Assembly (NCBI GenBank): GCA_028718945.1
Contig: JAQUKT010000005.1
Location: 1-47,527, forward strand
Length of the DNA: 47,527 nt
Direction: 5' to 3'
Origin: Actinomycetota bacterium
GTDB taxonomy: Bacteria; Actinomycetota; Geothermincolia; Fen-727; JAQUKT01
Shown here: piece by piece, positions 26,718 through 36,395 of the stretch
Layout: each line of letters opens with the position of its first letter
Numbering within the stretch: the first letter of the stretch is position 1
Translations under genes and position numbers: made by a program
The notes under the pieces: model-generated
What the model was told of the DNA's origin: nothing
Seen by the model: only the letters and a program-made list of their open reading frames with translations
Databases searched by the model: none

Positions 26718-27482
26718 ATGTATTGCAAAAATTGCGGTAATCAGATTGAAGAAGGCAGTGCATTTTGTTCGAGTTGTGGCACGCCGGTTGAAGAAAGTGG
26801 AAAGTCGCCAAATCAACCGGTTGTTAGTCCGGAAGCGGAAACGCAGATTCAGGCGCCCCCTCCGGTTTACGCTGATGTGCCAAAGAAAAGTTCCGGAAAA
26901 ACTTTTGGAATAATCGCCGGGATAGCCGCGGTTGTAATCGCCGCAGTTGTGCTGTGCCTTGTATTCCTCGTTTTCAAATCTGACGACACGGGGAAAGCGA
27001 AAGAATACATGATGAATGTGGAGAAGCTTGGAGATGAACTCAGTACGGGACTGACGGACACAAGCGAAACGCTTTCCAAACTCGGCACCGACATGGAAAG
27101 CGGCCAAGTCCAGTCAAGCAGTCAGTTTGAGGCTCAAGCGGATAGAAGCCGCTCCGCTATGGAGGATTTGAAACCAGAAATAGCTGAAATAAGGGCGGAG
27201 CTCAAGAAATTTGATAACCTAAAAGGCGTTGAAGATTACAAGGAATACGCCAGTCTAAGAACGCAGGAAATTGATAGTGTAGAAGAGATGCTCGGAAGCG
27301 CGACCGAAATGCTCAACTATCTTAGTGGTGTTTTCAAGTCAATAGAATCCGGTGTTGCGATGGATGAGAACGAGATGACGAGCAAAGTTAATGGCTATTC
27401 ACAGGAAATTAAGCAAAAAAGCAGCAGGATTGAAGAACTCGACAACAAAGTCAAGAAACTCGAAAGAGAAAAGAACCTTTGA
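26718..27482 (+). CDS. Zinc-ribbon membrane protein with coiled-coil C-terminus
   Basis: MYCKNCGNQIEEGSAFCSSCG, one TM helix, coiled-coil tail; RBS aaggaggctt before 26718. Confidence 0.8.
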   Translation: MYCKNCGNQIEEGSAFCSSCGTPVEESGKSPNQPVVSPEAETQIQAPPPVYADVPKKSSGKTFGIIAGIAAVVIAAVVLCLVFLVFKSDDTGKAKEYMMNVEKLGDELSTGLTDTSETLSKLGTDMESGQVQSSSQFEAQADRSRSAMEDLKPEIAEIRAELKKFDNLKGVEDYKEYASLRTQEIDSVEEMLGSATEMLNYLSGVFKSIESGVAMDENEMTSKVNGYSQEIKQKSSRIEELDNKVKKLEREKNL

Positions 27483-27501
27483 TTAAGACCCCGACTTTAT
27501 T
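27387..27501 (+). repeat. 115-bp direct repeat flanking the island, left copy (3' end of zinc-ribbon gene)
   Basis: 113/115 match, no gaps, to 36281-36395 (offset 8894). Confidence 0.95.
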
Positions 27502-27515
27502 AGTCGTACTGGTCG

Positions 27516-27782
27516 ATGGGGAGCCACAAGGAGAAGCGCGTAGTGCCTTCGACATTTGGGTGGGTAGATTTCGGCGAGCACGAGAGACGCCAAATGATGG
27601 AGATGCTCGACCTCTTCCGCAAGCCCGAGACCCGCGACGAAATGGGACTGGGGACGATTCGCGACTCCTTCTCCGATTACTTCTTTCCAGGGACCAGCAC
27701 GATACAGACGAGACCCAAATACATGCTCCTGGTCCCCTGGATATACAGGAAGCTGGAAAAGAACCGCGTCCCTTGGGCATGA
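27516..27782 (+). pseudogene. Truncated DUF6361-like N-terminal fragment (88 aa)
   Basis: STFGWVDFGEHERRQMMEMLDLFRKPETRDEMGLGTIRDSFSDYFFPGTSTIQTRPKYMLLVPWIYRKLEKNRVP resembles the DUF6361 N-terminus from memory; stop follows at RVPWA. Confidence 0.5.
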
Positions 27783-27795
27783 AGGAGAACATGAA

Positions 27796-33890: not shown

Positions 33891-33985
33891 TTACAATTAT
33901 TACAAAGACGATGACTGTAAATGAAAATATTAATAATATGAAGGATGTCGGATCAGACAATCAACATTGAACAAGGGGTATTTGT

Positions 33986-35902
33986 ATGTCCAGAGCCTTT
34001 CTAAGAAACACGTGTATTTTCGCGGCGATATTGCTTTGTTCATTGTTATTCTTACCGAATGTATCAATTCATGCCATTGGTGGCATGAGTCGCACATCGT
34101 CCAGTGCACAGGCAATCGTTTTCCCGAAGTTCAGGAACTTGAGCTTCGATGAAGGGGAAACTGGCTGGACTTTTACGGAGCAAGCGAGGTATGAAACCCA
34201 TGAAGTCCATTCCCCTTCACGACGTTCAGTAATGACCCCGATGGGTGGCTATGGACAGCAAACTGGTTCAGTTGAACAAGAGGTCAGTTGTCATCTGCCG
34301 GCAGGAACCACAGCCAGAGTAAGTGCATATGTCAAAATGCCAAAAGCCGGAAGCACTAGCAATAAGATATTTGATCTAAGGGCTGGTGGTCTCGACGAAA
34401 CAGGTACCACCGATACTTTCTATTCAGGTGCATGGGTAGAGGGGGCGAGGCTAGGACCTTATTCCGACTGGACGTTAGTAGAATGGGACCTTTTCCTCGT
34501 CAATCCAAATCTAGAGACTCACTCGATGTATATAAGTTTCTGCACAGGAGACGGTCCTAAAGCTTTTCCCGATTTTCGACCAGTGTACATTGATGATGTA
34601 AAGGTCGCATTCTTTACTCCGAAGGTAAATTTCCCGGTGGGCTCTGAGTATTATTGGGAGGTCGCAAAAGGCACAAGTAGCCCCGGTCCCAACAACTGGG
34701 ATCAGAAAAACGTCTGGCAAGATTCGGACGGATACCTACATCTCAGAATCAGTAAAGACGGAAGCAAGTATTATTGCGCGGGGGTCTATTCAACACAGAA
34801 GTTCGGACACGGAACCTATGATTGGCAGGTTAAAGGTCCTGTCGATAAACTCGATCCAAACGTTGTCTTTGGCATGTTCGGTTATCTGAATGGAACTACG
34901 CCATATACAAATGAGATAGATATTGAGTTCGCTAGATGGGGGAACCCAAAGTGGGATAATGGCAACTATACAGTCTGGCCCGCAAATCTGATTTCGAACT
35001 ATAGTAGTGTATGCCATACGTACGAAGCAGACCTAAAAGGAGCTGATGAATCGACGCATAGATATACCTGGGGCCCAAATGAACATTATAAAGAGAACGT
35101 AACATTTAGGAGTTTTAAAGGATTTAAGCCGATTGAATATGAGTCGATGTATTTGCAGCACTGGGGGGTGGGTACAAATGGAAACCATATACCTAGCCAA
35201 CCTCTGAACATCCACATGAACCTGTGGTTACACGACGGGAATGCACCATATTACCCCTCCAACAGGCACAATGTTGTTGAGGAAATCGTAATCAAGAATT
35301 TCCAGTTCATACCAGCTTCCAGTGTTACATCAGTACAACCAACATTTGGACCCCCGGGCACAAAAGTGACTGTCGAGGGATCAGGGTTCGGTAAAAGCCG
35401 TTCGGGAAGTTGTAATAGCGGTGGTGGATTTGAGTCCTACGTATCTTTCAACGGTGTTCCCGCAACTAGATATGACCTCTGGACTGACAGCAGGATAGTA
35501 ACCTATGTTCCTGAGGGAGCTACACCTGGCCCTGTAGCTGTTGTAACACTCGGAGGCGATTCTGGAACTAGAAAGCTGTTTCAAGCATACCCAACCTGGT
35601 ATCTCCCTGAGGGATGCACAGATGGAGGCTTTGAGACTTTTGCATTGGTCCAGAACCCTGGCAATGATCCTGTGCACGTGAAGGTATCTTTCCAGACCGG
35701 CAAGGGGGAAGTCGCTCCGCCCGAGCTAAAGAACTTCAAGATAAACCCGAAATCAAGATGTACCTTCAACGTCGGCCAGTTTGTCACAGACGCCAACGTC
35801 TCCACGAAAGTTGAGTCCACCGACGGTAACGTGATATGCGAGAGGGCATCGTATTGGAACGGGAGATCCGGAGGCACCGACTCATTAGGTTTCTCGTACT
35901 AG
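33986..35902 (+). CDS. Secreted GH16-family glycoside hydrolase with IPT/TIG-like and WYLxEG surface domains
   Basis: Signal peptide; GH16 motif NEIDIEFARWG; VTSVQPTFGPPGTKVTVEGSGFG (IPT/TIG); C-terminal TWYLPEGCTDGGFETF domain at 35594. Confidence 0.8.
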   Translation: MSRAFLRNTCIFAAILLCSLLFLPNVSIHAIGGMSRTSSSAQAIVFPKFRNLSFDEGETGWTFTEQARYETHEVHSPSRRSVMTPMGGYGQQTGSVEQEVSCHLPAGTTARVSAYVKMPKAGSTSNKIFDLRAGGLDETGTTDTFYSGAWVEGARLGPYSDWTLVEWDLFLVNPNLETHSMYISFCTGDGPKAFPDFRPVYIDDVKVAFFTPKVNFPVGSEYYWEVAKGTSSPGPNNWDQKNVWQDSDGYLHLRISKDGSKYYCAGVYSTQKFGHGTYDWQVKGPVDKLDPNVVFGMFGYLNGTTPYTNEIDIEFARWGNPKWDNGNYTVWPANLISNYSSVCHTYEADLKGADESTHRYTWGPNEHYKENVTFRSFKGFKPIEYESMYLQHWGVGTNGNHIPSQPLNIHMNLWLHDGNAPYYPSNRHNVVEEIVIKNFQFIPASSVTSVQPTFGPPGTKVTVEGSGFGKSRSGSCNSGGGFESYVSFNGVPATRYDLWTDSRIVTYVPEGATPGPVAVVTLGGDSGTRKLFQAYPTWYLPEGCTDGGFETFALVQNPGNDPVHVKVSFQTGKGEVAPPELKNFKINPKSRCTFNVGQFVTDANVSTKVESTDGNVICERASYWNGRSGGTDSLGFSY

Positions 35903-35989
35903 CTACATACAAGGGGCAAACATGAATCTCCTGTGAGGTCCAGTGAGACGGCGATCACTATATATTTGAGATGATGGAATAGAATTAAA

Positions 35990-36280
35990 AGCTTTACGAG
36001 TGAATCCACCGCCTTTTTTGCCCCAATTTCACCGAGTGCCCACGCAGCACTGGCTCTCACGCGCGGGACCTTGTCTTCCAATACTTCGACAAGCTCTTCA
36101 GTACATCGTGGGTTCTTGATCATTCCAAGCGCTATTGCCGCCGCGTTCTTGTCCCCTGTTGTGCCGCTCACCAGCAGTTCGGTCAACGCGCTGACTCCAC
36201 GCTTGTCTCCAAGACCTCCAAGCGAACCAGCCGCTGCCTCTCTTACCCTGGAATGCTGGTCTAAAATTGCAGAGATTAGA
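35990..36280 (-). pseudogene. HEAT-repeat protein fragment, truncated at both ends
   Basis: Minus-strand frame ...DQHSRVREAAAGSLGGLGDKRGVSALTELLVS...KVPRVRASAAWALGEIGAKKAVDSLVKLL; abuts the 115-bp repeat. Confidence 0.65.
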
Positions 36281-36395
36281 GTTAATGGCTATTCACAGGA
36301 AATTAAGCAGAAAAGTAGCAGGATTGAAGAACTCGACAACAAAGTCAAGAAACTCGAAAGAGAAAAGAACCTTTGATTAAGACCCCGACTTTATT
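36281..36395 (+). repeat. 115-bp direct repeat flanking the island, right copy (orphan gene 3' end)
   Basis: 113/115 match to 27387-27501; differences at 36310 and 36316 only. Confidence 0.95.

What the first reader, a model, noticed from the sequence alone, without database searches (positions are those of the whole stretch)
27387..36395. 8.9-kb island bounded by 115-bp direct repeats derived from the 3' end of a coding gene
27387-27501 (last 32 codons of a zinc-ribbon gene plus stop and 19 bp) recurs at 36281-36395 with 113/115 identity, no gaps and a constant offset of 8894. Both differences (A/G at 27416/36310, C/T at 27422/36316) are third-position synonymous changes (CAA/CAG, AGC/AGT), and the last 79 bp are identical. 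Mismatches confined to one side plus an intact gene at the left copy is what att-site integration into a gene 3' end looks like, with the element supplying a replacement tail. The usual targets are tRNA genes; here the target would be a protein gene. No integrase or recombinase is recognisable inside, so the mobilisation route is open.
Basis: partly seen in the sequence, partly recalled or inferred. Interest (0 to 1): 0.85.

Follow-up and report, generated by a model that had tools for sequence, protein, structure and literature searches.

The report
Imported island behind duplicated gene tail
An 8.8-kb stretch of patchwork DNA sits behind a bacterial gene whose last 32 codons are repeated on its far side, most likely because foreign DNA carrying its own copy of the gene's tail recombined into the gene without breaking it; distant relatives carry whole arrays built in a similar way.

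Summary
The repeat is real: 27386-27501 and 36280-36395, 116 bp, two mismatches, both third-position synonymous, last 79 bp identical. It is shorter than the k=127 of the assembly, so it does not look like a graph join. Both flanks are typical of the genome and the insert is not. The insert is a patchwork: a truncated ZacA/DUF6361 gene, an Mre11-Rad50 pair, a damaged IS1634-family IS, an orphan 3' fragment, a secreted TIG protein, and a HEAT gene cut by the right junction. No integrase is present. The same layout (gene, cargo, partial copy of that gene) occurs twice more in this genome, around toxin-antitoxin-like pairs, with mostly synonymous divergence. Relatives of the same order carry arrays of 3' fragments of two other genes, with breakpoints that recur at the same codons. 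Best explanation for the window: incoming DNA carried its own gene tail, recombined in that tail, and was joined illegitimately at the other end (single crossover, or homology-facilitated illegitimate recombination). The empty site and a circular form could not be tested: no relative closer than the same order is held.

The parts
26694..27482 (+). Target gene: 262-codon zinc-ribbon (PF13240) coiled-coil protein, intact
   Evidence: best homologue outside 43% identical, similar length, so its C-terminus is native-like
27386..27501 (+). Left repeat copy: last 32 codons, stop and 19 bp
27502..36279 (.). Inserted patchwork segment (8778 bp)
   Evidence: composition atypical while both flanks are typical; no match to other contigs beyond short repeats
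27516..27782 (+). N-terminal fragment (88 codons) of a ZacA/DUF6361 protein (profile 388-396 positions)
27796..28908 (+). Mre11/SbcD-like nuclease, intact ORF
   Evidence: 56-57% identical pair partner in G017 and G030
28908..31337 (+). Rad50/SbcC-like ATPase; ORF complete, its last codons run into the IS end
31334..33360 (+). IS1634-family insertion sequence, perfect 22-bp terminal inverted repeats; transposase 31564-33276 broken by TAA at 31981; no flanking direct repeat
33363..33536 (+). Orphan 3' end (57 codons) of an unidentified gene, low G+C
   Evidence: (no family)
33588..33642 (.). Palindromic intergenic repeat, 93% identical copy on contig C66
33986..35902 (+). Secreted IPT/TIG-domain protein of a family frequent in this genome
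35902..36279 (-). HEAT-repeat gene without its 5' part: reading frame open right up to the junction
   Evidence: missing part not found in 1.57 Mb of the genome
36280..36395 (+). Right repeat copy: displaced gene tail
36492..37460 (+). Enoyl-CoA hydratase gene right of the island (start probably 36690, where homology to relatives begins)

Best explanation
The island is imported DNA that arrived joined to its own copy of the zinc-ribbon gene's 3' end. Recombination within that shared tail attached it to the resident gene. Its other end, inside a HEAT-repeat gene, was joined without homology just upstream of the resident tail, which was thereby displaced 8.9 kb to the right. This is a single-crossover insertion of a (re)circularised fragment, or homology-facilitated illegitimate recombination. 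The gene keeps a complete reading frame throughout. The IS and gene decay inside came before or after. Shown: the repeat, the intact gene, the cut HEAT gene, the absent integrase, the atypical insert, and recurrence at other genes. Inferred: the import, the order of events, and RecA-type rather than site-specific recombination.
For: Layout and lack of homology at the outer junctions. HEAT frame open through the junction, so the insert's right end is an arbitrary break. No integrase or resolvase. Insert atypical, flanks typical. Two further loci in the same genome: C4 (113-codon gene, 212-bp repeat 82% identical, 22 synonymous and 8 nonsynonymous codon changes, AbiEii-like pair between; relatives G012 and G001 show the gene directly followed by sufC, i.e. 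the empty arrangement) and C34 (175-bp repeat of a gene 5' end, 82%, HepT-MntA between). ECH tail copies in relatives differ about 3:1 synonymous to nonsynonymous, so they are donor alleles. Single-crossover events in E. coli gave duplications of 109-950 bp (PMC3240628). Sequential displacement arrays were ascribed to this process in Vibrio (PMC5361080).
Against: In relatives the breakpoints of comparable fragments recur at the same codons with a weak shared motif, which fits a site-specific enzyme better than random joining. At 98% identity the donor would have to be very close yet carry entirely different DNA starting 19 bp after the stop. No donor, empty site or circle was seen for this locus.
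Confidence: 0.5

Rival explanations
1. Integrase-type (att) insertion into the 3' end of the zinc-ribbon gene, the element carrying a replacement tail; the recombinase acts from elsewhere or was lost.
For: The repeat runs from inside the gene to just past the stop, leaving the gene whole, as e14 does in icd. Mismatches lie only in the left part. Relatives show codon-precise, recurrent breakpoints in two other genes with a shared upstream motif above shuffled controls. The genome has tyrosine recombinases, including an interrupted integron-integrase-like gene on C31.
Against: No recombinase in the island; the junction cuts the HEAT gene; the motif is absent at 36280 (score 2.1 against a site median of 5.3); only one instance of the site.
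Confidence: 0.25
2. The 115-bp repeat is a long target duplication made by the IS1634-family element (IS1634 and IS1549 make 8-514 bp repeats), with later rearrangement around the IS.
For: The only transposase inside is of that family; long variable repeats are reported for two members (PMC2266710).
Against: The IS ends lie 3.8 and 2.9 kb inside the island, no IS end is found at the island borders, and the IS itself has no flanking repeat. The ECH arrays of G006 exist without any IS1634-family gene.
Confidence: 0.07
3. Assembly artefact: contigs from different places or strains joined through the shared 115 bp.
For: Metagenome-like draft of 121 contigs; no reads available.
Against: Contig ends overlap by exactly 127 bp in many pairs, so k was 127. 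The longest identical block here is 79 bp and no 127-mer of the window occurs twice, so the repeat makes no branch in the graph. Both outer flanks have the genome's composition.
Confidence: 0.06
4. Local duplication of the gene tail inside one genome, followed by independent insertions between the copies.
For: Only 2 differences in 115 bp; both copies could come from one genome.
Against: Needs several independent events. The parallel loci show donor-resident divergence, not in-situ duplication.
Confidence: 0.08

Closest known systems
e14 prophage in E. coli icd (and Rac in ttcA)
   Same: Insertion in a protein gene; the element supplies the gene's end; a 163-bp displaced copy of the gene end remains (PMC6379469). 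Rac at a gene 5' end is the mirror case, like locus C34 here.
   Different: e14 is a prophage with its own site-specific recombinase; none is present here, and the far end of this insert cuts a gene.
Homology-facilitated illegitimate recombination and single-crossover insertion (E. coli conjugation; Vibrio T6SS immunity-gene arrays)
   Same: One homologous anchor, one non-homologous joint; duplications of 109-950 bp in E. coli (PMC3240628); stepwise displacement of 3' ends producing arrays (PMC5361080).
   Different: Those cases are experimental or compare many strains; here no strain pair exists, and in relatives the breakpoints are more regular than the model predicts.
IS1634/IS1549 long-repeat insertion
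   Same: An IS of this family lies in the island; repeats of 8-514 bp are known (PMC2266710).
   Different: The repeat does not flank the IS and the island ends carry no IS ends.
Integron cassette arrays
   Same: In relatives, serial small cargo units rich in toxin-antitoxin pairs between repeated sites; integron integrase intact in G003, interrupted in this genome on C31.
   Different: The repeated units are 115-370 bp pieces of protein genes; no attC was identified, and the integrase is not linked to these loci.

Membership tests
Integrase-mediated island in a protein gene 3' end (e14/icd type) | Direct repeat derived from the target gene's end, target gene intact | tested here: met
Integrase-mediated island in a protein gene 3' end (e14/icd type) | Element encodes a site-specific recombinase | tested here: not met
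   No PF00589 or PF00239 match in the window; island ORFs scanned
Integrase-mediated island in a protein gene 3' end (e14/icd type) | Same base-precise site used repeatedly | tested here: inconclusive
   Only one instance at this gene; recurrent sites exist in two other genes of relatives
Integrase-mediated island in a protein gene 3' end (e14/icd type) | Excision to a circle and an empty site | not testable with these tools
   No reads; no genome closer than the same order
Single-crossover / homology-facilitated illegitimate insertion | One joint in homology, the other with little or none | tested here: met
   Right joint shares 1 bp before the tail and lies inside a HEAT gene
Single-crossover / homology-facilitated illegitimate insertion | Duplication length within the range seen experimentally (109-950 bp) | tested here: met
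   115-116 bp here, 175 and 212 bp at C34 and C4; range from PMC3240628
Single-crossover / homology-facilitated illegitimate insertion | The two copies are donor and resident alleles | tested here: inconclusive
   Window: 2 of 2 changes synonymous, too few. C4: 22 synonymous and 8 nonsynonymous; ECH copies about 3:1
IS1634-type long target repeats | Repeat directly abuts the IS ends | tested here: not met
   No repeat at 31333/33361; no IS end at the island borders
Gene-tail cassette arrays of relatives (ECH gene, 113-codon gene) | [T]AACAACA-like motif upstream of the breakpoint | tested here: not met

The most novel reading that the evidence does not exclude
The order to which this genome belongs has a site-specific cassette system without integrase in the cassettes: cargo units, often toxin-antitoxin pairs, insert at fixed codons of ordinary protein genes (enoyl-CoA hydratase near codon 197 and a 113-codon gene near codons 40 and 60), each bringing a replacement gene tail, and so build arrays of displaced tails. 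The window's island would be a member that uses a third gene.
Probability: 0.15. Interest if true: 0.8.

Novelty: new member of a known kind. Interest (0 to 1): 0.48.

Why it matters
It shows a way for genomes to take up foreign DNA next to ordinary protein genes without losing them and without an integrase of the element's own. Because each event leaves a displaced gene tail, such insertions can be found and dated from sequence alone. If the codon-precise arrays of the relatives prove to be enzyme-driven, they would be an unrecognised cassette system that spreads toxin-antitoxin pairs.

Tried and rejected
Plasmid collection: no match to the island. Genome-contig and viral-contig scans gave no relative of the locus and no ECH-tail site. 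Closest homologue of the zinc-ribbon protein is 43% identical, so no empty site could be read for this gene. A tRNA target was rejected: no tRNA in the window. Composite transposon on IS1634 ends was rejected. A ZacA-Mre11-Rad50 defence operon was considered and rejected: in G017 and G030 the Mre11-Rad50 pair stands without ZacA, and the ZacA piece is a fragment. Repeats on C1, C12, C9, C15 and C2 were checked and are RAYT-like repeats, a tRNA island, or domain repeats of secreted proteins; C7 is a duplicated tuf gene. Literature searches for DUF6361 and ZacA gave nothing relevant.

Full report
OBSERVATION. The repeat is confirmed at 27386-27501 and 36280-36395, one base longer than reported, with two mismatches, both at third codon positions and synonymous (CAA/CAG, AGC/AGT), and identical runs of 30, 5 and 79 nt. 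It is the only such pair in the genome. The left copy is the end of an intact 262-codon zinc-ribbon gene. The window is the whole of contig C5 of a 1.80-Mb draft in 121 contigs; no closer relative than the same order is held.

ARTEFACT? Many contig ends of this assembly overlap by exactly 127 bp, so it was built with k=127 (inference from the overlaps). The repeat's longest identical block is 79 bp and no 127-mer of the window occurs twice, so it forms no branch in such a graph. Tetranucleotide composition places both nearby flanks well within the genome, while the insert lies at the 96th percentile or beyond (the short pieces were compared without length matching). An artefact is unlikely but not excluded without reads.

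CONTENT. From left to right the insert holds: an 88-codon fragment of a ZacA/DUF6361 protein; an Mre11-Rad50 pair; an IS1634-family IS with perfect 22-bp inverted repeats, a transposase broken by TAA at 31981 and no flanking duplication; an orphan 3' gene end; a palindromic repeat shared with contig C66; a secreted TIG-domain protein whose C-terminal repeats are frequent in this genome; and a HEAT-repeat gene whose frame is open to the junction at 36279, so its 5' part is missing. The Mre11-Rad50 pair recurs in two genomes of the class (56-57% and 42-44% identity) as a plain two-gene unit without ZacA, so the ZacA fragment is a separate patch. No tyrosine or serine recombinase lies in the window. 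The insert is therefore a mosaic of broken and whole pieces rather than a tidy element.

THE SAME LAYOUT ELSEWHERE IN THE GENOME. In 1.57 Mb of this genome two more loci have cargo between partial copies of a gene end. On C4 a 113-codon gene is followed by an AbiEii-like/Rv0078B-antitoxin-like pair (weak family matches below the curated cut-offs), then by a copy of its own 3' part, then by sufC; the copies are 82% identical with 22 synonymous and 8 nonsynonymous codon changes. In G012 and G001 the same gene is followed directly by sufC, which is the empty arrangement. On C34 a HepT-MntA pair lies between two copies of a gene's 5' end, 82% identical. These divergences suggest that one copy came from another lineage; they do not look like duplications made in place.

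ARRAYS IN RELATIVES. The enoyl-CoA hydratase (ECH) gene, whose orthologue is the first gene right of the island, has partial 3' copies in G006 (about eight), G008, G010 and G011, and 5' copies in G007. Most copies in G006, and those on G008 C64 and in G010, begin at the same place, near codon 197-203, next to different cargo (HepT-MntA, an MFS transporter, secreted proteins, an AAA_14-DUF4143 protein), and differ about 3:1 synonymous to nonsynonymous within and between G006 and G008. A few copies begin elsewhere (near codon 280 in G006 and G008, where the G008 one is fused to a cut TetR gene). Contigs of these draft genomes break at these copies, as expected of true repeats. The 113-codon gene shows the same: fragments in G000, G006, G007, G010, G011 and G013 begin at codon about 40 or about 60. 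A short motif resembling TAACAACA upstream of the breakpoints scores 144 against 110-123 in shuffled sets; the window junction scores below every site. These arrays suggest either a hot spot or a site-specific enzyme. I could not name the enzyme. An intact integron integrase exists in G003, and this genome has an interrupted integrase-like gene on C31, but neither is linked to the loci.

MECHANISM. For the window I favour homology-anchored insertion: incoming DNA with its own gene tail recombined in the tail, and the other end was joined illegitimately inside a HEAT gene. Experiments in E. coli produced duplications of 109-950 bp by single crossover (PMC3240628), and stepwise displacement of 3' ends was proposed for Vibrio T6SS arrays (PMC5361080). 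Against att: no enzyme, a cut gene at the joint, no motif, a single instance. For att: the tail runs just past the stop, and breakpoints in relatives are codon-precise. A long IS1634-type repeat is possible in length (8-514 bp, PMC2266710), but the IS does not border the repeat.

VERDICT. Real, interpretable, and a new member of a known kind. The wider pattern in the order is the more surprising part and deserves a survey on complete genomes. That it is one mechanism is inference.

Noticed in passing
L068, L069, L070, L072 (G006 contigs C12, C6, C15); L073, L074 (G008); L079 (G010): Arrays of enoyl-CoA hydratase 3' fragments alternating with cargo genes, mostly starting at the same codon; contigs chained by identical 130-bp ends (C15-C12-C6), and both ends of C12 are the same 130 bp.
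   Followed up: partly
L256-L269, L270-L286 (113-codon gene between ssb and sufC; G006, G007, G010, G011, G013, G000): Second gene with arrays of 3' fragments, breakpoints at codons about 40 and 60, HepT-MntA cargo in G010.
   Followed up: partly
G000 C34 3151-4356 (L167): HepT-MntA pair between two copies (175 bp, 82%) of the 5' end of an LPG-synthase-TM gene; a truncated tyrosine recombinase lies at 5913-6299.
   Followed up: partly
G000 C31 260-1060 (L164); G003 C98 1041-1979: Integron-integrase-like gene, interrupted by a TAA in this genome and intact (462 bits) in G003.
   Followed up: no
window 1-112 and 158-299: Two tandem molybdenum/tungsten cofactor riboswitch matches on the minus strand (Rfam RF01055), one cut by the contig end.
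   Followed up: no
G000, about ten copies, e.g. C13 4280-4446, C30 11294-11464, C44 1995-2164: Dispersed 165-170 bp repeat with terminal inverted repeats, looks like a MITE.
   Followed up: no
window 14109-14150 and 42836-42901: GGGGTCAGGTCTTGCAATGACACATTT-type repeats, dispersed over many contigs, resembling REP/RAYT repeats (from memory).
   Followed up: no
G000 C9 27401-32684 (L142, L250): 5.2-kb island bounded by a 47-bp repeat that reads like a tRNA gene 3' end, also without a recognisable integrase.
   Followed up: no
G007 C2 (L075) about 10440 and C14 (L076) about 1190: 5' parts of the hydratase gene end at TTCTGCGCCCAG, where 3' fragments of other genomes begin, and continue into similar new sequence (GCG..AAAG..CTA.TGGTACT).
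   Followed up: no
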